Shown: positions 51,975 to 64,000 of the stretch, one piece after another
How positions within the stretch are numbered: position 1 is the stretch's first letter
Layout of the letters: the number at the start of each line of letters is the position of its first letter
Origin: Sterolibacterium sp.
Lineage (GTDB): Bacteria; Pseudomonadota; Gammaproteobacteria; Burkholderiales; Rhodocyclaceae
Direction of reading: 5' to 3'
Length of the DNA: 64,000 bases
NCBI GenBank assembly: GCA_023258955.1
Contig: JAHFRE010000001.1
Coordinates: 1-64,000 of the forward strand
Notes under the pieces: model-generated
What the model saw: the letters and a program-made list of their open reading frames with translations, nothing else
The model's database searches: none
What the model was told of the DNA's origin: nothing
Made by a program: the position numbers and the translations under genes

Positions 51975-52591
51975 ATTGCCTCTGAGATCAGTCCTTTTTC
52001 GTGGAAGCCCTTCAACTCGTAAAGGCGTGACTCTTTGGAGGTCAGTGCGGGTGTCGGGGCATCCGCTTTCGCCGGAGGACTAGGAGCTCTAGCTGCGGCA
52101 TCAATCGGCGCTGGCAGGTTCGTCGAAGCTGTCGCCTGCAGGAGTTTGGTTTCTTTCAGCGCTATGGCGTAGGGTCCGCCATTCACATCGACCGAGCCAT
52201 CTCTTACCGTACCCTTGGCCCCAAGGAAGCTTGGCGCTTCAAGATGCGCTGCTCTCGGCGCAATTTCAAAGTGGTACTCTCGGTTAGCTTCCAGCTCGAA
52301 GTGAGATACGAATGTTCCCGGAGTAAACCACGCGTAGGTCGCGAGGATGACCTTTCCAGGTTCGATTGCTGCCGAATAGCTCTCGCCTTGCCGCAGTTCA
52401 GCAACGCGGTTCCCGTTTAGGTCAACTCTTGCTGGTACCTGCATAAGCGACATGTCGTCGTTCATCGTGATGGTCAGCTTGGCCTTGCCCTGCGGCACGA
52501 CCAATGCCGAAGGTGCTTGCACCCCGGCGGGTTGTGTTGTCGCGCAACCCGATAGGACTATGGACAAGGCCAAGATTGTCAAAATGCGCAT
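51932..52591 (-). CDS. Lipoprotein with C-terminal SHOCT domain
   Basis: A 219-residue protein with a lipoprotein signal (ILTILALSIVLSGC, Cys16). Residues about 30-145 form a beta-rich domain resembling DUF2846-type lipoproteins (KLTITMNDDMSLMQVPARV; an EANREYHFEI strand). After a proline/alanine linker, the last 30 residues (LYELKGFHEKGLISEAIY) match the SHOCT oligomerisation motif. Likely anchored in a membrane facing the periplasm. Function unknown; unrelated to the catabolic operons. Confidence 0.8.
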   Translation of the reverse strand: MRILTILALSIVLSGCATTQPAGVQAPSALVVPQGKAKLTITMNDDMSLMQVPARVDLNGNRVAELRQGESYSAAIEPGKVILATYAWFTPGTFVSHFELEANREYHFEIAPRAAHLEAPSFLGAKGTVRDGSVDVNGGPYAIALKETKLLQATASTNLPAPIDAAARAPSPPAKADAPTPALTSKESRLYELKGFHEKGLISEAIYLEKQREILGSGQ

Positions 52592-52895
52592 GGATGCTCC
52601 AGAAGAAAGTCGTGCCGTGACATTGGAATGGTGTGATCCGCGAAAATCCGCGATTTACTGAACCGTCGCACCATGAATGGCGAAGATCCCGGTGCTGAAC
52701 ACAACAACCGCCTTCTTACCTGAGGCGGCACCCGACTGAGATGAGATGGTATCTATCCGACAGTAGAATGCCCATGGCATAGAGGGGCGCGGCCACCAAG
52801 GTCTCCGGTAGAGTGGTTGTTGCGACACATCCACTTTTACAGGAGAAAACACGATGACCGCTATCTCGTATAGTCGTCGTGGCAAAAGGGAGTGT
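52592..52895. other. Intergenic stretch, no convincing gene
   Basis: About 300 bases, AT-richer than the left half. Both strands carry short open frames (for example 52655-52885 on the minus strand) that match nothing I recognise. A plus-strand ACAGGAG followed by ATG at 52854 opens a frame that does not extend far. It may contain insertion-sequence debris, but no terminal repeats were seen. Confidence 0.4.
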
Positions 52896-53150
52896 TTATT
52901 TCCAGCCAGCCTCTTTCTCGCATGCCTTCATTTCATTGGGGTGAGTCTTCTCCCATGCTGAAATTGACTTCGTTTCGTTGTCGTCCATCTTGCCATTCAT
53001 GCAGGTACAGTACTTCCTAACGACCTCAGGTGTAGCGCCTTCTCCTTTGTTGTCTGCAACACATTTCTTAATCCATGCTTGGTCATCTGCGCCAGCTTGA
53101 GCTTGGAATGAAAGAGCGATGAACGCAACTGCCGCGATTACCTTGTACAT
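52896..53150 (-). CDS. Small exported cysteine-containing protein (84 aa)
   Basis: An 84-residue protein with a signal peptide (YKVIAAVAFIALSFQAQA) and a short mature region with four cysteines (KKCVADNK, RKYCTCMNG, KACEKEAG), probably forming two disulfides in the periplasm. ATG 53150 has GGAGG 5 bases upstream, so it is preferred to the ATG five codons earlier. Similar short CxC/Cys-motif proteins of unknown function are common; I cannot assign a role. Confidence 0.75.
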   Translation of the reverse strand: MYKVIAAVAFIALSFQAQAGADDQAWIKKCVADNKGEGATPEVVRKYCTCMNGKMDDNETKSISAWEKTHPNEMKACEKEAGWK

Positions 53151-53376
53151 GCGACGCCTCCCCAAGAAGATAAGCGATCGAAAAGAATGGAGTACAAACT
53201 ATAACGCAAAAATCCGTTCCTGCGACCTCTCCACGACAATGTTCCGGATCAATGTAGCGGCTCTCCCGTCTCGACTGGGGACCTCAGTACGGCGTCCGCC
53301 CTGAGTCGAACTTCTGCTGCCCTTGGCGATGTAGAGGTGCGCGCTTGGATCCGTTCAGCGGAAATCGAGACAGCCG

Positions 53377-56300
53377 CTACATCCCATTTAGTTGTTGGTA
53401 GATTTGGCTCAATATCTCCTCTGCCGTCTTGGAGCGGATGCTGTATGCCTTGTTATCCATATTGAAGTACTCGTAGCCGAACGAATAGCACCCTTGGACC
53501 CAAGGTGTTGCAGCAAATGCGAGCAGCGTCGCTTGATAGGCCCGCGCCTGTTCGTCATAGTCGCTGACGGGTGAAACGACGGTCGGGGAGAACTGGGTAA
53601 TTTCTGGCGCGTCAACCCGGTACTGCTGCATCGCCGACGTGTTCGCGGAATAGTATGCTATTTCGCCAAACACAAAGGGCTTGTTGCCGAAGCGTTGTGA
53701 AAGCGGCTGGTATTTCGACGCCAATTTGCTGAGGGCTGCCGAATACATATCAGATACCGGCGCATTGTCAGTGGTCGCCACGGGCCACCACCATTTATCG
53801 CCCAGATAATCGAGGTCGCCGTACCAGTCGTATTCGGCGGCGTCGGAATTGAAGCTGTCAATCGTCAACTTGAGCGACGGCGCGACGGCACGGATCGAAG
53901 CGATTATGTCCTTCCATTTCGCGTTGATGTAAAGCCGAGTTGCTGGATTGGCGGATTCGACTCTATCCTCCGCCCAGCCGTTGTTCGCCAGGATCAACAG
54001 GTCCACCCCCTCCTGCTGGGCGATGGTTGCGTGATACATGAATACGGCCTTCACCTGGTCGTAGAATTGGTCGTACCAGGCATTGCTGTGAGGCACCAAG
54101 AAGAAGCTTTCGTAGTCGGCGTTGTTGCCGATAGGGAATGGAAAGGCCTTGAGCGCAACCTTCAAGCCCTGCCTCTTGATTTCACGGATATGGGTCAGCA
54201 GGTCCTCGGTCGGAAAGGAATTGCCCCCCTGCTCGACGATGGGATTATCGGTATTTCGAATATCCCAAACTGAGGCAATCTGCAGCCACTTAGCGTTCTT
54301 GCTCTTGAGCCTTGCTACCGACGGCCCAATCAGCGGCAGCCATGCGGGCCGCCAAAAGTCGATGAATTCAACACCGGTCTCGAAGGGCTCCGTCGTCCGC
54401 GGCGCAATTGCTCCGGCCATGCTGGTTTGCACGGTTGCCTGTGGCGTCTCGCGCATCTGGACGCCCCACACGGTGACGGAATCGTTGGCGGTCGCGCCCG
54501 CTGGACCAACGCTCACACTGCGGAAGACCGGAGGATCTTGATCGACCGGCGGGATCAGCTCAGAAATCACGCCGTCGCGCAAATAGCGATACCGCAGGGT
54601 TGAGTTCGGGCTGGTGTAGATGACGTAGGATGCCGTGTCCGATCCCGTTGCCCACATTTTCATCGGCGGACTATTGTTACCATAGTCGTCCGTGGCTACA
54701 TAGAGGGAACCGGTGCTGCCGGCCGGCGAGCTTACGGACAGCGCGACGGGAACCTGCTGCGGCGTCTTCCACGCCGTGACCGTATCCGTAATGGTCATCG
54801 GGCCGGTCACGCAAAACGATCGCAGCACTGGCCTGCCGTTTGCGTCGCGTTCTCTGCCGTCGCGTTCGTTGTTGAGGCCGCCGTAGGCCAATGTGTAGGT
54901 GTAGTTGAAGCAGGATCCGATACCCAGGCTCGTGGTGTATGACCAGCGTGCGCCGCTGACCGAGGTCATGTCGATCATGCGCGTGTAATCGACATTGCTC
55001 GTATGAAATCCAGCAACCATTCCAAGGCGCAGGCTGTCGCCGAAAATCCGTGGAATCGCCCCGCTGGGTGTGCCTGCCGGCAAGGTCACTTGGATCGTGA
55101 CATCGGCCATCGTCGCTGCGGCCATCGATATGTTCGCGATCGTCGTCCCTGTGGCGGAGACCGTCGCGGAGGCTCTGGTTGTCACGTGCTCGCCGCTGTC
55201 GGCGAAGACCGTAATCTCGCACGGCCCTGCGGGAACCCCTTGAAGTGTGTACGTACCATCCCAGCGTGTAGTAGTGCGGTGCGGTCCTGCACTGACGGAC
55301 AGGCCCATCAGGGGACGCCCATCCAGGCTACTGACTCTCCCGCCAAGTGTGCCCGTCGATCCTGTCGCAAGCTGCAAGCCATCCCACTGCGCGACGGTTT
55401 CCCTGACCACGCCATTCCTTATGACAAGGGCGTGACGAGCGGCAGTCGCATCGGGTCGGAAAGGAACCGCTTCCGTCTTTAGCCAGTCCATATTGCGCTT
55501 GAGTGCATAGCGGAGAACGGTACCTTCCGGTGCGTTGATGGATGCTTGAAAGACGTCGGGCCCGCTGGAAACCTTGGTCATCTGGACTTCCTGTGCGTCC
55601 ACTTCCAGGAAGATGCCGGTACGCAGCCAGATTGTGTCGGCAGCAGGCGTGCTGGGCGGAACCGCAACCGAGACTGTCATGCTGGCCATGGCAGGCTGCG
55701 CCGCCAACGTCGGCAGGGTCAATTGCATCGCGCTGGTGGCGTTGACCCAAAAGCCGTCCCCGACGGGAATCTGGCTCAGAACGCCAAGACCCCGGGCAGC
55801 GGCGTAGCTCGGCAAATCCACTGTGGGCGAGGGCGTATAGAAATCCCAGGAAGACCTGCCGCTGTTCCAATGCCATATCGATTCTATCTGCGGCGAAAGA
55901 GAGCCGAACACCGCAGCAACGTCGATGGCTCTATTGGCGTTGTTGCCCAGCAGGCTCCATCCCCTCGCCAGGTTGAGCACCGGAGTGGAGGAGACGATTG
56001 CATTGGCGCTCGCTCCCGTGTGGGGTAGGGTTAGGCTCAGATCAGAACCGGCAGCGAGATTTACCCAAAAGCCTTCGCCCAAGCCGATCTGATTCAGTAC
56101 GCCATAGCCGTGAGTCACAGCAAATGCTGCCGAATCGATGCTGGCGAGTGGCGAGTAGAACTCCCATGACGAAGACGCCCCGTTCCAGCGCCAGACAGCA
56201 TTCACCCGGCCGCTAAGAGCGCCAAAGGCTGACGCAACGTCGAAGGGCTGATTGGAACTGTTGCCGACGAGGTTCCAACCTGGCTTGAGATTCAGGGTCG

Positions 56301-56424
56301 GCAGGGGGGCGGTGATATTCTGACCGAAGCCTTTGTTGCACAGGAATAAGCCGGTAAGCAGACCGACTATTCTTAGGGTTGTACGGAAGTTCCCCAACCT
56401 CAATGTCGGCGTCGTCGCGCCCAT
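53377..56424 (-). CDS. Large secreted multidomain protein with glycoside-hydrolase-like C-terminal domain
   Basis: A 1015-residue exported protein. After a signal peptide (IVGLLTGLFLCNKGFG) there are two tandem repeats of about 90 residues (LNLKPGWNLVGNSSNQPFDV and LNLARGWSLLGNNANRAIDV begin them; each contains a WxWN block and ends GEGFWVN or GDGFWVN). A carboxypeptidase-regulatory-like beta sandwich follows (GRVSSLDGRPLMGLSVSAG), then one or two CBM-like beta domains, and from about residue 700 a TIM-barrel-like domain (VEFIDFWRPAWLPLIG; KVALKAFPFPIG; ILANNGWAEDRVE; KPFVFGEIAYYS) resembling GH113/clan-A hydrolases. The glutamate in FGEIAY fits a nucleophile; the acid/base site reads NNGWAED. 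ATG 56424 has GGGAGG 6 bases upstream. Confidence 0.7.
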   Translation of the reverse strand: MGATTPTLRLGNFRTTLRIVGLLTGLFLCNKGFGQNITAPLPTLNLKPGWNLVGNSSNQPFDVASAFGALSGRVNAVWRWNGASSSWEFYSPLASIDSAAFAVTHGYGVLNQIGLGEGFWVNLAAGSDLSLTLPHTGASANAIVSSTPVLNLARGWSLLGNNANRAIDVAAVFGSLSPQIESIWHWNSGRSSWDFYTPSPTVDLPSYAAARGLGVLSQIPVGDGFWVNATSAMQLTLPTLAAQPAMASMTVSVAVPPSTPAADTIWLRTGIFLEVDAQEVQMTKVSSGPDVFQASINAPEGTVLRYALKRNMDWLKTEAVPFRPDATAARHALVIRNGVVRETVAQWDGLQLATGSTGTLGGRVSSLDGRPLMGLSVSAGPHRTTTRWDGTYTLQGVPAGPCEITVFADSGEHVTTRASATVSATGTTIANISMAAATMADVTIQVTLPAGTPSGAIPRIFGDSLRLGMVAGFHTSNVDYTRMIDMTSVSGARWSYTTSLGIGSCFNYTYTLAYGGLNNERDGRERDANGRPVLRSFCVTGPMTITDTVTAWKTPQQVPVALSVSSPAGSTGSLYVATDDYGNNSPPMKMWATGSDTASYVIYTSPNSTLRYRYLRDGVISELIPPVDQDPPVFRSVSVGPAGATANDSVTVWGVQMRETPQATVQTSMAGAIAPRTTEPFETGVEFIDFWRPAWLPLIGPSVARLKSKNAKWLQIASVWDIRNTDNPIVEQGGNSFPTEDLLTHIREIKRQGLKVALKAFPFPIGNNADYESFFLVPHSNAWYDQFYDQVKAVFMYHATIAQQEGVDLLILANNGWAEDRVESANPATRLYINAKWKDIIASIRAVAPSLKLTIDSFNSDAAEYDWYGDLDYLGDKWWWPVATTDNAPVSDMYSAALSKLASKYQPLSQRFGNKPFVFGEIAYYSANTSAMQQYRVDAPEITQFSPTVVSPVSDYDEQARAYQATLLAFAATPWVQGCYSFGYEYFNMDNKAYSIRSKTAEEILSQIYQQLNGM

Positions 56425-56781
56425 CTCTGCCTCCCTGTTCCCGCTTGTCTGATCGTTATTGTTATCAAGATGACCGCGTGGAACCAACGCGGAGTTGCTT
56501 CCCCAGATGGTAGCTCCTTATGCCGTTTGGTCTATCTCATCCGATCGCTCACGTTACCCATTATCATTATTGGCGTCAATGCGAATCGGTCGACGTCAGC
56601 CAGCTAAAGCAAAGTGCGGCTTCAGCAAACTGGGTAGAGCATTAGCAGAAGGTCTGAGACAACTAGCTGTCGCCGGATGGTCAGCGTATATTCCAGTCCG
56701 GCTAGCTGGGCAGTGTCCGAGGACGTGCAAGCGACATCAACGGTACCGAGGACGCTCACACCGAAAAGGGGTTGAAGTACT
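56425..56781. other. Divergent intergenic region
   Basis: About 357 bases between the divergent secreted-protein and YVTN-protein genes. It must contain both promoters, but no clear -35/-10 pair was found. Short frames on both strands match nothing known. Confidence 0.5.
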
Positions 56782-58455
56782 ATGAATCTTTCAGAGCGTA
56801 TCGCCACATTGCGCTTGGTCGTCGGGCTGTTGCTGTGCACTATCGTCGCACCAACACAGGCTTTCCCGATTATCGTCGATCCTCCCTATCCAGTCGTTTG
56901 CAAGTGTGTGGCCGTGAACCCAGTGACCAACAAGACCTACATGATCATCGGCGGGACGGATCTGACCGTGGTCGACGGCGCGACAGGCAACTCGAAATCG
57001 CTGTGGAATAGCACGACTAGCCTTGCCTATCCCATTGCGGTGGCCGTGAACCCGGTGACCAATAAAGTCTACCTGGTGAACTATAGCGCCGACACCAAGG
57101 CCAACTTTGTGTTAGTCGTTGATGGGGCGACTGAAGCATCGACCACTGTCGCTACTGGCTTGGCGTCGATTGACGTACAAGTAAATTCCGTAACCAACAG
57201 AGTCTACATTGTGAACAGCGGCGGCTACCAGACCAGAGCTTCCGAACAACATCCTCCCTTTCAAGGTTCCGTTACCGTATTGGATGGCGCTACCAACACC
57301 ACCATCGGCACCGTGCCAACGGGAAGTTCATCTATTGCTGCGGGCGTGAATCCTGTTACCAACAAGATCTATGTTGCGAACTACGACAGCAACGACGTCA
57401 CGGTGATCGATGGCGCTACCAACACCGCAACGACGGTTGCGGCGATGAACTCGCCGATCGATGTGGCAGTCAATCCATCAACCGATAAGATCTATGTAGC
57501 CAACTACGGTAGCAATGCCGTCACCGTGATCGATGGCGCGACCAACAGCACAGCTGCGGTGGCCAGTGGTATTCATCCGGTAGAACTGGCAGTGAATCAG
57601 GTAACCAACGCGATCTATGCTCTCAACGTCGGTGACGAACGAGGCGGCAGAGGCAACGTCACGGTAATCGATGGTGCAACCAACGCCACAAGCACCGTGC
57701 CGACTTGGGCAGATCCCACTGGGATCGCGATCAATTCGCTGACCAACAAGGTCTATGTGGTGAACTCAGGTTGGGTTGCAGGCAATGCATATAACCTCTT
57801 CAGCGTGACGGTGATCGATGGGGCAAGCAACGTGCCGAACACTGTGGCAACCGAGATGCACCCGACGGCAATTGGATTGAATATGACGACCAACAAGATC
57901 TATGTCGCGGATATCTTATCGATCGGTACGAACCTGGCAGGCCGCAATCACATCACGATAATTGACGGTTCAATCTCGCCCAGCGTCGTTGAGTTTTACA
58001 ACAGCAAGCTTGACAACTACTTTATTACCGCGGACCCATTCGAGGCGAGCGCGATTGACAACGGGAGTGCGGGACTGAGTTGGTCGCGCACCGGGAAGTT
58101 GTTCAAGTCGGGAGGCAACGCCGCAGTGTGCCGTTTTTACGGAAGTCAGTCGCCGGGACCGAACTCGCATTTCTACACGGTGAACGCCGCCGAGTGTGCA
58201 GGCCTGAAGCAACTTCAAGCTATCACGCCTGTAACAGAAAAGCGTTGGAATTTCGAAAGCTTGGACTTTCTGTCAACCATGCCCAGCAGCGGTACCTGTC
58301 CCAGCGGCACAACACCGGTCCATCGTGCATACAACAATGGCTATGCCCGTGGTGTCGATAGCAATCATCGAATCACAATCGATCCGGCGGCCATACAACA
58401 GGCGGTCTCACTCGGCTGGATTGCAGAAGGTGTGGTTATGTGCGCGCCGATATGA
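56782..58455 (+). CDS. Exported YVTN/YncE-type beta-propeller protein with DUF5648-like C-terminus
   Basis: A 557-residue protein. The signal peptide ends near residue 28 (LVVGLLLCTIVAPTQAF). Residues about 40-395 are built from roughly eight repeats of the form AVNPVTNKIYVANY ... VTVIDGATN, the YVTN beta-propeller unit found in surface and periplasmic proteins. From about residue 400 there is a separate domain (VVEFYNSKLDNYFITADPFE; FYTVNAAECAGL; WIAEGVVMCAPI) resembling DUF5648. AAGGGG precedes the ATG. Function unknown; probable extracellular binding or structural role. Less GC-rich than the left-hand operons. Confidence 0.82.
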   Translation: MNLSERIATLRLVVGLLLCTIVAPTQAFPIIVDPPYPVVCKCVAVNPVTNKTYMIIGGTDLTVVDGATGNSKSLWNSTTSLAYPIAVAVNPVTNKVYLVNYSADTKANFVLVVDGATEASTTVATGLASIDVQVNSVTNRVYIVNSGGYQTRASEQHPPFQGSVTVLDGATNTTIGTVPTGSSSIAAGVNPVTNKIYVANYDSNDVTVIDGATNTATTVAAMNSPIDVAVNPSTDKIYVANYGSNAVTVIDGATNSTAAVASGIHPVELAVNQVTNAIYALNVGDERGGRGNVTVIDGATNATSTVPTWADPTGIAINSLTNKVYVVNSGWVAGNAYNLFSVTVIDGASNVPNTVATEMHPTAIGLNMTTNKIYVADILSIGTNLAGRNHITIIDGSISPSVVEFYNSKLDNYFITADPFEASAIDNGSAGLSWSRTGKLFKSGGNAAVCRFYGSQSPGPNSHFYTVNAAECAGLKQLQAITPVTEKRWNFESLDFLSTMPSSGTCPSGTTPVHRAYNNGYARGVDSNHRITIDPAAIQQAVSLGWIAEGVVMCAPI

Positions 58456-58523
58456 TGCGATACTTGAGAATCTCCAGACAAGGCAAACGTCGGTTGTCTT
58501 CGCACAGGAGATGCCCTGTCGAC

Positions 58524-59120
58524 CTAGCGACGGTCATAGTTTCTTGTCTTGAGGCGGGCGACTTCTTCTGTCGCCAGTACACGAGGCTCGACCACCGGGC
58601 TGCCTGCGCGGGAGAACAGCGGCGACTGGCGATAGCGCCCGGAGATTCGATCGGCGATGGACATGACCAGAAACTTGCCGATCGTGCTGAGTAGTCTATG
58701 CTGTCTGGGCATGGTGCTGCCAGTGGCCGTGTGGGTGTTGACCGCTGCAGTCACCGCGCCGAAGTCGCGATCGATCGTCGCCGGATCCAGGCAGGTGTGG
58801 ATGAGACCGACTATTGAGACTCTTGGGTTTGCAAGCGTGTTGCCGATAGGGGTGTTGCAGCAGCGCGCATACCAGCGCAGCAGCCCCTTGGCTGTAAGCC
58901 GCACACAGGCCAGTTGATCAAGGCCCGTGTCGATCTGCAGACGCGATTGCGACACTTGAACGATCTCGGTTCCGCCCTGCTGATCCAGAACACCAGCGGC
59001 AGGACCAAAGAAGCGTCCAAACGCCTGGCAGTCGGTGCAATAGCAGCGAAGTCGATTGCTCGGTGAGCCGTTCCGGATGTAACCACTGACGGTGCCGCAC
59101 TTGCAGCTTAGTCGATGCAT
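58524..59120 (-). CDS. DUF6151/GFA-like zinc-binding protein
   Basis: A 198-residue protein with the cysteine pattern of glutathione-dependent formaldehyde-activating (GFA)-like proteins: CKCGTVSG near the N-terminus, CYCTDCQAF, and CCNTPIGN in the middle, which together should bind zinc. It matches the DUF6151 subgroup by pattern. The family's biochemical role is uncertain. It converges with the YVTN gene (68 bases between stops). Confidence 0.75.
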   Translation of the reverse strand: MHRLSCKCGTVSGYIRNGSPSNRLRCYCTDCQAFGRFFGPAAGVLDQQGGTEIVQVSQSRLQIDTGLDQLACVRLTAKGLLRWYARCCNTPIGNTLANPRVSIVGLIHTCLDPATIDRDFGAVTAAVNTHTATGSTMPRQHRLLSTIGKFLVMSIADRISGRYRQSPLFSRAGSPVVEPRVLATEEVARLKTRNYDRR

Positions 59121-59436
59121 AGATTGACCATCCGCCAGTGGCCTGGCTCTTGTGGCGCCTAACGAAAATGGGGAGCCTAAACGACGGGCGATGGGGCGTC
59201 AATGAGACCATGAGTGTTTGAAAGATGAAATCGGTGGGACAATGCGACCTGGGTCAAGCTTAGAGGTTGTCATTGGCCCGAACAGGGAGAGGCGGAGGAG
59301 CGCTGACCTTGTTGCTGGCAAATGTCTGGTCCTTAAGTTGACTGGCAGCGAACGAACCGCCGAGGTATACGTCGAATAACATCTTGTGGCGCTTGTTCGG
59401 CCGGTCGGCCAAGCCCCATTCGGGGGGGGTACAATC
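59121..59436. other. Divergent intergenic region ending in a G8 tract
   Basis: About 316 bases between DUF6151 and the GGDEF-EAL gene. Small overlapping frames on both strands were judged spurious. Its notable feature is eight consecutive G residues at 59422-59429, which act as the ribosome-binding sequence of the next gene (spacing 7). Confidence 0.6.
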
Positions 59437-61968
59437 ATGATCGACGAACTGAGCCGACTGCTGGCCGTCAATGGCTTCCTTCCCCACGGCTATTGTCTCA
59501 GCTGGTCGCCGCCGCTGATATTGATCTACGTCGTCAGCGATGTTCTGATCTTTCTCGCCTATTTTTCCATGCCGGTGGCCCTGGTCTATTTCGCGCGGCG
59601 GCGCGCGGATTTTCCCTACCGGTGGTTGTTGTGGATGTTCGCCGCCTTCATCATGGCCTGTGGCGCAACCCACCTGATGGGGGCCGTCGTGTTGTGGCAG
59701 CCGCTATATGGCTTGGACGCCCTGTTCAAAGCCATCACCGCCCTGGTCTCGATTACGACGGCGGCCATGATTTGGCCCTTGATTCCGCACGCGCTGAAGC
59801 TGCCCAGCCCGGCTCAGTTGACCAACGCCAACGAAGAACTGCAACGCGAGATTGTTGTACGCAAACGTGCCGAGGAAGCCCTGCGCGTGGCCAAGGAGGC
59901 GGCGGAAGACAGCTTGCAGAACGAGCGGGTTCTTATGGCGGCGATCGTTGAATCCTCCGAGGACGCTATTCTCGGCGAAACGCTCGACGGCATCGTCACC
60001 AGTTGGAATCTGGCTGCGGAAAGGATGTTTGGCTACCGAGAGGATGAGATCCTGGGGCGGCCCATTCTCGATTTGTTGCCAGCAGAGCGGCGCGCGGAGC
60101 AGGACGAGGTGCTGGCCGTCATCCGCTGCGGCGAATCGATCAAGCAGCTCGAGACGGAACGCATCTGCAAGGATGGCCGACGCATTGCCGTATCCGTCAC
60201 GGTCTCCCCCATCCGCGACAAGGAAGGCCGGATCGTCGGCGCATCGAAAATTGCTCGCGACATCACCGATCGGCAACGATCGGGGGCCGAGCTACGCATC
60301 GCTGCCGTCGCCTTCGAGTCGCAGGAACCGATGATCGTCACGGATGCCAACACGGTTATTCTGCGCGTCAATCGGGCCTTTACCGAGACCACCGGCTTCA
60401 CCGCCGAGGATGCGGTCGGCAAAACGCCGCGTCTGCTCAAATCAGGCCGGCACGACACGGCCTTCTATCGCGACATGTGGCAAGCCATCAATCGCGTCGG
60501 TTTCTGGCAGGGAGAGATCTGGGACCGGCACAAGAACGACGAGGTGTATCCGAAGTGGCTCACCATCTCGGCGGTAAAGGATGGCGATGGCTCTGTCACC
60601 CACTACATAGGCACGCATTTTGACATCACGGAACGCAAGCAGGCGGAAGACAGGATCAAGGAATTGGCGTTCTATGACCAGCTTACCGGCCTGCCCAACC
60701 GGACGTTGTTGCTGGATCGCTTGAAACAAGCCATGACGGTCGGTACCCGTAGCGGCACTTATGGTGCGCTGCTATTCATCGATCTCGACAATTTCAAGAT
60801 GCTCAACGACACGCTGGGGCATGACAAGGGCGACCAACTGCTGCAGCAGGTCGCACGACGCTTGACGATGTGTGTCCGCGAGGGCGACACCGTGGCCCGC
60901 TTGGGCGGTGACGAATTTGTGCTGATACTGTCGGCGTTGAGTCCCAGCGAGAGCGATACCGCCAGCGGCACGGAGACGGTTGCGCTAAAGATTCTCGAGA
61001 CGCTAAACCAGAGCTACCAACTGGGTGAGGCGGTCTACCGCAGTACGGCAAGCATCGGCGCAACCTTGTTCAAAGGGCAGTCGATAGCGGTCGACAAGCT
61101 GATGAAGCAAGCTGACCTTTCCATGTACAAAGCCAAGGCAGCGGGCCGAAACGCGGTTCGGTTCTTTGACCCGGCCATGGAGGCTGCCGTGATGAAGCGC
61201 GTCGCGCTTGAAGAAGACCTGCGCCGCGCTCTCGATGAAAAGCAGTTCTTGCTCCACTACCAAGCCCAGGTCGCGGGCGAACGCGAGGTAACGGGAGCCG
61301 AAGTCCTGGTGCGCTGGCAACATCCGCAAAGAGGCATGGTTTCGCCGGCAGAGTTCATCCCGCTGGCCGAAGAAACTGGATTGATCCTGCCGTTGGGCCA
61401 GTGGGTGATGGAAGCCGCTTGCATCCAGTTGGCGCTATGGGCGCAGCGGCAGGAGATGGCCCATCTCACGATTGCGGTGAATGTCAGCGCCCATCAGTTT
61501 CGCCAATCCGACTTCGTCGAACAGGTGCTGGCGGTACTGAAGAACACTGGAGCCAACCCCTATCGGCTGAAATTGGAACTCACCGAAAGCTTGCTGGTAG
61601 AGAATGTGCAAGACATCATCGAGCAGATGTTCGCACTGAAGGCCAAAGGGGTGGGCTTCTCTCTCGACGACTTCGGCACCGGCTATTCGTCGCTCTCCTA
61701 TTTGAAGCGGCTGCCGCTGGACCAGTTGAAGATCGATCAGTCTTTTGTGCGTGACTTGCTCAAAGATCCGAACGACGCCGCGATCGCCAAGACCATCGTC
61801 GCGCTGGCGCAAAGCCTGTCGCTGGGTGTGATCGCGGAAGGGGTTGAGACAGAGGCCCAACGCGACGTCTTGGCCAGTTCCGGCTGCCATAACTATCAGG
61901 GATATTTCTTTAGTCGGCCGCTCCCGCTGACCGAGTTCGACGAATTCTTGAGGGCCAATCGGCGCTAA
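59437..61968 (+). CDS. Ethylene-receptor-like membrane PAS-PAS-GGDEF-EAL protein
   Basis: An 843-residue signalling protein. Residues about 25-120 hold three membrane segments matching the ethylene-binding domain of plant ETR1: SDVLIFLAYFSMPVALVYF and FAAFIMACGATHLMG, with Asp35, Tyr42, Ile72, Cys75 and His79 at exactly ETR1 positions 25, 32, 62, 65 and 69 plus ten. A short coiled coil (130-155) is followed by two PAS domains (about 165-285, 290-405), a GGDEF domain with intact GGDEF near residue 490 (LGGDEFVLIL) and an EAL domain whose signature is EVL (near 621), with LTES, DDFGTG and LKIDQSF retained. It may both make and degrade cyclic-di-GMP in response to ethylene or copper. ATG 59437 fits the ETR1 alignment and follows a G-rich ribosome-binding site. 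Confidence 0.88.
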   Translation: MIDELSRLLAVNGFLPHGYCLSWSPPLILIYVVSDVLIFLAYFSMPVALVYFARRRADFPYRWLLWMFAAFIMACGATHLMGAVVLWQPLYGLDALFKAITALVSITTAAMIWPLIPHALKLPSPAQLTNANEELQREIVVRKRAEEALRVAKEAAEDSLQNERVLMAAIVESSEDAILGETLDGIVTSWNLAAERMFGYREDEILGRPILDLLPAERRAEQDEVLAVIRCGESIKQLETERICKDGRRIAVSVTVSPIRDKEGRIVGASKIARDITDRQRSGAELRIAAVAFESQEPMIVTDANTVILRVNRAFTETTGFTAEDAVGKTPRLLKSGRHDTAFYRDMWQAINRVGFWQGEIWDRHKNDEVYPKWLTISAVKDGDGSVTHYIGTHFDITERKQAEDRIKELAFYDQLTGLPNRTLLLDRLKQAMTVGTRSGTYGALLFIDLDNFKMLNDTLGHDKGDQLLQQVARRLTMCVREGDTVARLGGDEFVLILSALSPSESDTASGTETVALKILETLNQSYQLGEAVYRSTASIGATLFKGQSIAVDKLMKQADLSMYKAKAAGRNAVRFFDPAMEAAVMKRVALEEDLRRALDEKQFLLHYQAQVAGEREVTGAEVLVRWQHPQRGMVSPAEFIPLAEETGLILPLGQWVMEAACIQLALWAQRQEMAHLTIAVNVSAHQFRQSDFVEQVLAVLKNTGANPYRLKLELTESLLVENVQDIIEQMFALKAKGVGFSLDDFGTGYSSLSYLKRLPLDQLKIDQSFVRDLLKDPNDAAIAKTIVALAQSLSLGVIAEGVETEAQRDVLASSGCHNYQGYFFSRPLPLTEFDEFLRANRR

Positions 61969-62041: not shown

Positions 62042-63610
<1,569 letters not shown>

Positions 63611-63619
63611 GAGCGGGTC

Positions 63620-64000
63620 CTATGCCGTGGCCGAGCCGGAGATCGTCAGATAGGCTTGCTTCCGCGCCATATCGTCATCGCTATCGACGAAGCGGCCGGC
63701 GATGGCGCGAAACTCGTCCTGGATCGCGAGGAAGCTGTCGACCACATCGGGATCGAAATGCCGGCCGCGACCCTCGGCGATGATGGTCACGGCCGCCTCG
63801 TGGGGCATCCCTTCCTTGTAGACGCGGCGGCTGATCAGCGCGTCGTAGACGTCGGCGACCGCCATCAGGCGGGCCGACAGGGGAATCGCTTCGCCGGCGA
63901 GGCCCTCGGGATAGCCGCTGCCATCCCACTTCTCCTGGTGCGAGTAGGCGATCTCCTTGGCCATGGTAAGAAACGCGACCGGCGTGCCCAGGGCCTGCTC
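63620..64000 (-). CDS. HD-GYP-domain protein (C-terminal part; 5' end outside window)
   Basis: The frame is open to the right edge, so the start lies beyond the window; 126 residues are visible. The HD-GYP half-motif is YSHQEKWDGSGYPEGLAGE, followed by IPLSARLMAVADVYDALISR and the RVYKEGMPHEAAV block, marks of cyclic-di-GMP phosphodiesterases of the RpfG type. The missing N-terminus is probably a receiver domain. With the two genes to its left it forms a cyclic-di-GMP/phosphorelay locus. Confidence 0.9.
   Translation of the reverse strand, partial: EQALGTPVAFLTMAKEIAYSHQEKWDGSGYPEGLAGEAIPLSARLMAVADVYDALISRRVYKEGMPHEAAVTIIAEGRGRHFDPDVVDSFLAIQDEFRAIAGRFVDSDDDMARKQAYLTISGSATA

What the first reader, a model, noticed from the sequence alone, without database searches (positions are those of the whole stretch)
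59437..61968. Ethylene-receptor copper site on a cyclic-di-GMP enzyme
Seen: Asp35, Tyr42, Ile72, Cys75 and His79 match ETR1 residues 25, 32, 62, 65 and 69 with constant offset, within matching membrane segments. Known: Cys65 and His69 hold the Cu(I) that binds ethylene in ETR1 and in the Synechocystis receptor. Here the output is PAS-PAS-GGDEF-EAL. Inference: ethylene or copper sensing controls cyclic-di-GMP in this bacterium.
Basis: partly seen in the sequence, partly recalled or inferred. Interest (0 to 1): 0.75.

Follow-up and report, generated by a model that had tools for sequence, protein, structure and literature searches.

The report
Ethylene-receptor domain on cyclic-di-GMP enzyme
A bacterium carries a protein whose front end closely resembles a proven ethylene-gas receptor and whose back end is a pair of enzyme domains that make and destroy the bacterial signal cyclic-di-GMP, so the gas may set the signal directly; the gene looks like a natural fusion, and such fusions arose more than once.

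Summary
Window 59437-61968 (+) encodes an 843-residue protein: ethylene-binding domain (Pfam ETR1_N, E 6e-37), two PAS domains, GGDEF, EAL. Asp35, Tyr42, Ile72, Cys75, His79 and Lys98 have the same residue numbers as in AzoEtr1 of Azospirillum brasilense, shown to bind ethylene (PMC11819568); Met45 replaces Ile35 of ETR1 (recalled as required). New here: the gene is an in-frame mosaic. Up to about base 60265 it matches the ethylene-receptor histidine kinase of its own genome; beyond, it matches ordinary PAS-GGDEF-EAL genes of that genome. A congener carries a separate fusion with another GGDEF-EAL partner (one origin rejected, p-AU 2.6e-50). Ten of 95 receptors compared have a GGDEF output; all ten keep the five residues. 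Related receptors often lie beside HD-GYP (cyclic-di-GMP phosphodiesterase) genes. Best reading: a one-protein ethylene-to-cyclic-di-GMP switch. Ethylene binding, enzyme activity and the direction of control are inferred. Bacterial ethylene-binding domains with varied outputs are already in print, so this is a new variant of a known kind.

The parts
59437..61968 (+). Whole gene (alternative in-frame start GTG 59386): EBD-PAS-PAS-GGDEF-EAL, 843 aa from ATG
59437..59802 (+). Ethylene-binding domain, residues 1-122, three predicted membrane helices; ETR1_N match at 59515-59802
59482..59505 (+). PHGYCLSW: P-H-G-x-C-x-x-W motif before helix 1
59539..59541 (+). Asp35 (ETR1 Asp25)
59560..59574 (+). 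Tyr42-Phe-Ser-Met45-Pro46; Met45 replaces ETR1 Ile35
59650..59673 (+). Ile72 to His79, holding Cys75 and His79, the presumed Cu(I) ligands
59728..59730 (+). Lys98 (ETR1 Lys91, AzoEtr1 Lys98)
59809..59901 (+). Long signalling helix, residues 125-155, between EBD and PAS1
59935..60279 (+). PAS1 and its closing DITDRQR motif
60258..60272 (+). Fusion junction: overlap of the stretch matching the own EBD-kinase gene and the stretch matching own PAS-GGDEF-EAL genes
60292..60648 (+). PAS2, ending in DITERKQAE
60667..61161 (+). GGDEF domain (REGD at 60877-60888, RLGGDEF at 60898-60918)
61204..61941 (+). EAL domain (E-V-L form of the motif in AEVLVRW at 61297-61317)
62042..63610 (-). Convergent neighbour: REC-REC-histidine-kinase-like protein, 522 aa (not shown to belong to the system)
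63620..64000 (-). Convergent neighbour, continues beyond the window: REC-HD-GYP protein of 385 aa (read whole in L038:6620-7777)

Best explanation
It is a membrane-bound one-component ethylene receptor whose output is cyclic-di-GMP turnover. Cys75 and His79 hold Cu(I) among the membrane helices of a dimer; ethylene binds the copper, and Asp35 and Lys98 help pass the change to the signalling helix, PAS1, PAS2 and then the GGDEF-EAL pair. I expect ethylene to lower net cyclic-di-GMP, as it does in A. brasilense; the direction is the least certain step (about 0.55 given that it is a receptor). The gene arose by in-frame fusion, at the end of PAS1, of an ethylene-receptor-kinase front to a PAS-GGDEF-EAL module of a kind resident in the genome. 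Shown here: domains, residues, their conservation, the mosaic, and a separate second fusion in the genus. Inferred: ethylene binding, copper loading, enzyme activity, and the direction of control.
For: ETR1_N 126 bits; key residues at the same numbers as in AzoEtr1, whose residues 1-130 bind ethylene; all 10 of 10 EBD-GGDEF proteins keep D35, Y42, I72, C75, H79, and 9 of 10 keep K98 (one Arg); membrane domain under purifying selection between congeners, dN/dS 0.10; GGDEF and EAL signature stretches present; ethylene lowers cyclic-di-GMP in A. brasilense; mosaic structure by protein bins and by DNA; AU tests against one origin; 8 of 21 related receptors within reach of an HD-GYP gene against 0.68 expected, a post hoc count.
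Against: No binding or activity data. Met45 replaces Ile at a position recalled as required in ETR1, though 22 of 79 kinase-type relatives also have Met. Direction is unsure: ethylene raises biofilm in Synechocystis (PMC11819568 introduction) and cellulose in Komagataeibacter (PMC4686702, title and passages), the opposite of A. brasilense. The two PAS domains may carry other signals. Copper supply was not examined. PAS2, GGDEF and EAL diverge strongly from the congener's protein, so its architecture is not conserved by descent.
Confidence: 0.7

Rival explanations
1. The membrane domain holds copper but senses something else, such as copper itself, another small alkene or alkyne, or carbon monoxide, with the same cyclic-di-GMP output.
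For: The Cu(I) ligands are the best-kept residues; 33 of the 79 genome loci found are from records named as methanotroph taxa, bacteria that depend on copper (general knowledge).
Against: Residues tied to ethylene binding beyond the ligands, D35, Y42, I72 and (outside L121) P46, are kept too in the GGDEF set; two bacterial homologues are reported to bind ethylene (PMC11819568).
Confidence: 0.15
2. The membrane domain is now mainly an anchor, and PAS1 or PAS2 provides the signal that controls GGDEF-EAL.
For: Two PAS domains lie between, and the fusion replaced the old output.
Against: Membrane domain is the most constrained part between congeners (dN/dS 0.10 against 0.19 for PAS1, 0.65 for PAS2); all five key residues are kept in 10 of 10 GGDEF-type proteins.
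Confidence: 0.1
3. The junction is an assembly misjoin of two genes.
For: The genome is a draft in 389 contigs with many similar PAS-GGDEF-EAL genes (34 scored matches of 89 candidates).
Against: Longest exact repeat at the junction is 18 bases among 11 compared loci and the rest of the window; the six other own-genome matches to the junction stretch are 70-75% identical; the frame is kept; the architecture recurs in other records, including a named strain (Solimonas terrae, GGDEF without EAL).
Confidence: 0.03

Closest known systems
AzoEtr1, Azospirillum brasilense Sp7 (PMC11819568; L195)
   Same: Ethylene-binding domain 47.8% identical over residues 11-123 (hit H12); D35, C75, H79, K98 at the same numbers; a PAS domain follows; ethylene lowers cyclic-di-GMP in that species.
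   Different: Output is a histidine kinase with a separate response regulator, not GGDEF-EAL; Ile45 instead of Met45.
SynEtr1/UirS (Slr1212), Synechocystis
   Same: Bacterial ethylene-binding domain; ethylene receptor by binding assay (as told in PMC11819568 and PMC5812497, passages).
   Different: Histidine kinase that also binds a light-sensing chromophore. Its sequence was not compared here.
Plant ETR1
   Same: Asp25, Tyr32, Ile62, Cys65, His69 correspond with constant offset (ETR1 letters recalled).
   Different: No PHGxCxxW motif in the recalled letters; plant output (kinase-like domain and receiver).
EBD-kinase of the same genome (G000:C40, L039:5558-7168)
   Same: 66.8% identical over residues 1-280 of the window protein.
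   Different: Histidine kinase output, with a response regulator overlapping its stop codon.
EBD-PAS-PAS-GGDEF-EAL of the congener (L058/L040) and EBD-GGDEF proteins L074, L109, L121, L123, L126, L128, L131
   Same: Same general architecture; five key residues kept.
   Different: Back halves come from other GGDEF-EAL lineages. I found none described in the papers I could search.

Membership tests
Ethylene-binding-domain receptors (ETR1_N, PF25487) | Profile match above the curated cut-off | tested here: met
   126 bits against 27
Ethylene-binding-domain receptors (ETR1_N, PF25487) | Cu(I) ligands Cys65 and His69 of ETR1 | tested here: met
   Cys75, His79
Ethylene-binding-domain receptors (ETR1_N, PF25487) | All seven residues required in ETR1 (list recalled: 25, 32, 35, 36, 62, 65, 69) | tested here: inconclusive
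   Six identical, the seventh Met45 for Ile35; effect of Met unknown; the source paper is not held
Ethylene-binding-domain receptors (ETR1_N, PF25487) | Saturable, copper-dependent ethylene binding | not testable with these tools
   needs a binding assay
Two-component ethylene receptors (SynEtr1/AzoEtr1 type) | Histidine kinase output with a partner response regulator | tested here: not met
   No HisKA or HATPase match in the protein; not filed as this subtype
Bifunctional GGDEF-EAL proteins | GGDEF and EAL domains with signature motifs | tested here: met
   GGDEF 154.6 bits, EAL 250 bits; RLGGDEF, REGD, AEVLVRW, LDDFGTGYSSL, IAEGVETE and others present; roles of the motifs recalled
Bifunctional GGDEF-EAL proteins | Diguanylate cyclase or phosphodiesterase activity | not testable with these tools
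   needs an enzyme assay

The most novel reading that the evidence does not exclude
Ethylene is a direct, one-protein regulator of cyclic-di-GMP in Rhodocyclales-like bacteria and methanotrophs: the receptor front end has been fused repeatedly to separate GGDEF-EAL modules, and kinase-type sisters sit beside HD-GYP phosphodiesterases, so both receptor types of this genome converge on the same messenger.
Probability: 0.45. Interest if true: 0.75.

Novelty: new variant of a known kind. Interest (0 to 1): 0.55.

Why it matters
How bacterial ethylene receptors reach physiology is open: the A. brasilense paper reports that ethylene lowers cyclic-di-GMP but that the pathway from receptor to responses is unknown. 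A receptor with the cyclic-di-GMP domains in the same chain offers a readable output, so gas binding could be tied to a measured reaction in one membrane protein. Repeated capture of new outputs by one gas-sensing front end is also a clear natural example of modular receptor evolution.

Tried and rejected
Solved structures: no sequence relative (best E 0.76, an unrelated enzyme); fold search of the model gave 0 matches at E <= 0.001, in line with the statement that an experimental high-resolution structure of this domain is lacking (PMC13012798, section 6). The same section says that EPR data on ETR1 fit an ab initio model better than AlphaFold's, so I draw no geometry from the model, and no coordinates were at hand to measure distances.

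Idea that the window's REC-HD-GYP neighbour is the orthologue of the one found beside related receptors: not established. L063's REC-HD-GYP matches it and a paralogue on C220 almost equally (437.7 and 436.7 bits), and the hybrid kinase beyond it is only 31-45% identical to those of four relatives. The association of HD-GYP genes with this receptor clade stands as a lead: 10 of 27 loci inside, 0 of 67 outside (recounted). For 21 of the 27 I estimated chance: 8 observed, 0.68 expected, Poisson 6e-7; left out were L047, L048, L049, L071 (no HD-GYP seen) and L076, L077 (near-copies of L075, HD-GYP seen). Clade and gene were picked after looking, the probe was the HD-GYP of L039 itself, the loci differ in length and are related, so the p-value is only a guide.

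The idea that the congener's gene is a plain orthologue was rejected: back half 26-51% identical against 64-86% in front, AU p 2.6e-50, and no shared flanking gene at the threshold used.

Literature: full-text searches for 'ethylene receptor' or 'ethylene-binding domain' with GGDEF, cyclic di-GMP, c-di-GMP, diguanylate cyclase, phosphodiesterase or methanotroph, and two wider ones, showed no title or abstract start that describes an EBD-GGDEF-EAL protein. Searches found more papers than they listed (18 of 19 and 20 of 28), and I opened only six papers (PMC11819568, PMC6682694, PMC7700396, PMC13012798, PMC5812497, PMC4686702), none in full. Wang 2006, Lacey and Binder 2016 and Carlew 2019 are not held. 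The review PMC7700396 says that bacterial EBD proteins have outputs not found in plants and points to a figure I could not see, so prior notice of this architecture is quite possible.

Sampling limits: of 37 first loci, 29 went into alignment A1 (L017 and L020, near-copies, and L032-L037, divergent, left out); 17 of the 37 (L010-L012, L016-L018, L020, L028-L037) are not in the 95-row set. The genome scan kept 79 distinct loci of 334 confirmed, nearest first, so 10 of 95 is not a population frequency. Six of 95 rows have no output assigned. The GGDEF-EAL tree holds 9 of the 10 GGDEF-type proteins (L125 has no EAL). One search read minus-strand loci in the wrong orientation and was redone. Copper transporters and ethylene metabolism genes were not searched.

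Full report
What is there. The gene runs from ATG 59437 (or GTG 59386) to 61968 on the + strand and encodes ETR1_N, two PAS, GGDEF and EAL domains, far above Pfam cut-offs. The better yardstick is AzoEtr1: the receptor read from A. brasilense Sp7 plasmid ABSP7_p1 (L195) is 525 aa from its ATG, as in the paper, and carries D35, C75 and H79 at the same numbers as the window protein. That paper (outline, sections 4, 6 and 7 and passages seen) shows saturable ethylene binding by AzoEtr1 1-130 and lower cyclic-di-GMP in ethylene-treated cells. One difference: Met45 where ETR1 (recalled) and AzoEtr1 have Ile; Met is also found in 22 of 79 kinase-type and 3 of 10 GGDEF-type rows, this protein included.

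The fold. AlphaFold2 on an alignment of 25 sequences gives a short helix at 17-21, membrane helices 25-55, 62-87, 91-121 and a long helix 125-155 (mean pLDDT 88.1). No solved structure resembles it convincingly by sequence or by fold at E <= 0.001.

The output. The GGDEF motif, an RxxD stretch five residues before it, and the usual EAL signature stretches (E-V-L in place of E-A-L) are present; the roles of these motifs are from general knowledge. Both activities are therefore possible; which dominates is not known.

The genome and relatives. The window lies in a 4.4-Mb draft genome with two ETR1_N genes. Of 61 genomes searched (own included), 8 have ETR1_N; within the genus 3 of 5. In a phylum-wide draw 28 of 398 pass the cut-off. 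The other gene of this genome (C40) is an EBD-PAS-histidine kinase whose end overlaps a single-domain response regulator by four bases, much as described for A. brasilense, followed by a REC-PAS-kinase-REC-Hpt-REC-HD-GYP gene.

The mosaic. Compared with the congener's protein (L058 = L040), identity is 86% in the membrane domain (dN/dS 0.10), 66% in the linker, 64% in PAS1, then 26% in PAS2, 48% in GGDEF and 51% in EAL. The window's back half is instead 76% and 75% identical to two G020 proteins at places without ETR1_N, and 70% to a paralogue on C75 of its own genome. In 30-aa bins the window protein matches three EBD kinases (own, G003, G020) at 53-90% over residues 1-210 and at 0-33% after residue 300; three EBD-less GGDEF-EAL proteins (L188, L189, L187) do the reverse, 13-43% over residues 1-270 and 53-93% over 301-840. 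In the own genome, window bases 60130-60272 match the EBD-kinase gene at 71%, and stretches starting at 60258 or 60266 match GGDEF-EAL genes at 71-75%. The change falls on the DITDRQR motif at the end of PAS1 (60259-60279). No exact repeat longer than 18 bases is shared there with 11 compared loci or the rest of the window.

More than one origin. On a tree of 95 membrane domains (120 columns; 41 of 92 inner branches open; bootstrap not settled) the GGDEF label needs 6 changes, at least 4 of them forced by well-supported branches. On a tree of 55 GGDEF-EAL regions, 9 with and 46 without an ethylene domain, the 9 need 4 changes; holding them as one clade is rejected (p-AU 6.5e-26), and so is holding the window and L040 together (p-AU 2.6e-50) (quick method, and the groups were suggested by earlier results). 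The congener's back half is nearest to L163 of G003 (86% identity). So the same front end has been fused to different cyclic-di-GMP modules, and this within one genus.

Constraint. In all 10 EBD-GGDEF proteins D35, Y42, I72, C75 and H79 are unchanged; in 79 kinase-type rows D35 is kept in 75, I72 in 78, the other three in all 79. The copper/ethylene site is thus kept as strictly with the new output as with the old one. Divergent loci left out of the set show what loss looks like: L033 and L034 have Arg in place of the His, L032 has Phe in place of the Tyr.

Neighbours. Downstream and convergent lie a REC-REC-kinase gene and a REC-HD-GYP gene. HD-GYP genes are found beside 10 of 27 receptors of this clade and 0 of 67 others; those of L063, L066, L069 and L075-L077 are 58-95% identical to each other, and the window's is 56-58% identical to them. 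See the caveats under Tried and rejected. It is a lead that kinase-type sisters also act on cyclic-di-GMP. By contrast, the congener's EBD-GGDEF-EAL gene has no HD-GYP gene in the locus held.

How it may work. In ETR1 the His69-copper distance grows on ethylene binding, and the conserved Asp is proposed to form a salt bridge to a conserved Lys that couples binding to signalling (PMC13012798, section 6). The window protein has Asp35, Cys75, His79 and Lys98, a continuous signalling helix and then PAS domains, so the same trigger could act on the GGDEF-EAL pair. For the direction I lean on A. brasilense (ethylene lowers cyclic-di-GMP); ethylene raises biofilm in Synechocystis and cellulose in Komagataeibacter, so the opposite sign is open.

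Verdict. Ethylene-binding domains in proteobacteria and their varied outputs are in print (PMC7700396, passages and legends; PMC11819568), so this is a variant of a known kind.

Noticed in passing
window 59482-59505; alignment A1; L032-L037: A P-H-G-x-C-x-x-W motif just before helix 1 is invariant in 29 of 29 rows of A1 and in 89 of 89 output-labelled rows (one of the two scan patterns contains it, so partly circular). It is absent from ETR1 as recalled. L033 and L034, which lack the copper His, also have an altered motif. His17 and Cys20 could help bind or receive copper.
   Followed up: partly
loci: 33 of the 79 genome loci come from records named Methylo- (methanotroph taxa), several with more than one copy (for example Methylobacter tundripaludum SV96: L085 with two, L114). 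Ethylene sensing in methanotrophs appears unstudied in the papers I could search (3 listings).
   Followed up: partly
L039:1508-7168 (G000:C40): Second ethylene receptor of the genome: EBD-PAS-kinase, then a response regulator, then a 1199-aa REC-PAS-kinase-REC-Hpt-REC-HD-GYP protein, all on one strand.
   Followed up: partly
G000: The genome is very rich in PAS-GGDEF-EAL proteins: 89 first-look candidates, 34 scored, all matching; it also has 18 HD-GYP-type matches.
   Followed up: no
L125:4392-6314: Solimonas terrae has an ethylene-binding domain with PAS and GGDEF but no EAL, so a possible cyclase-only version exists in a named strain.
   Followed up: no
window 53377-58455: A 1036-aa protein with a GH113-like domain and a 557-aa protein with NHL-like repeats and a DUF5648 end lie in a stretch of lower G+C (0.56-0.57 at 52001-60000, against 0.61-0.68 elsewhere).
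   Followed up: no
window 62042-64000 and L038:6620-13781: A run of signalling genes: REC-REC-kinase, REC-HD-GYP, a 1682-aa hybrid kinase (- strand), then another REC-HD-GYP on the + strand (domains of the last three by BLAST or sight only).
   Followed up: partly
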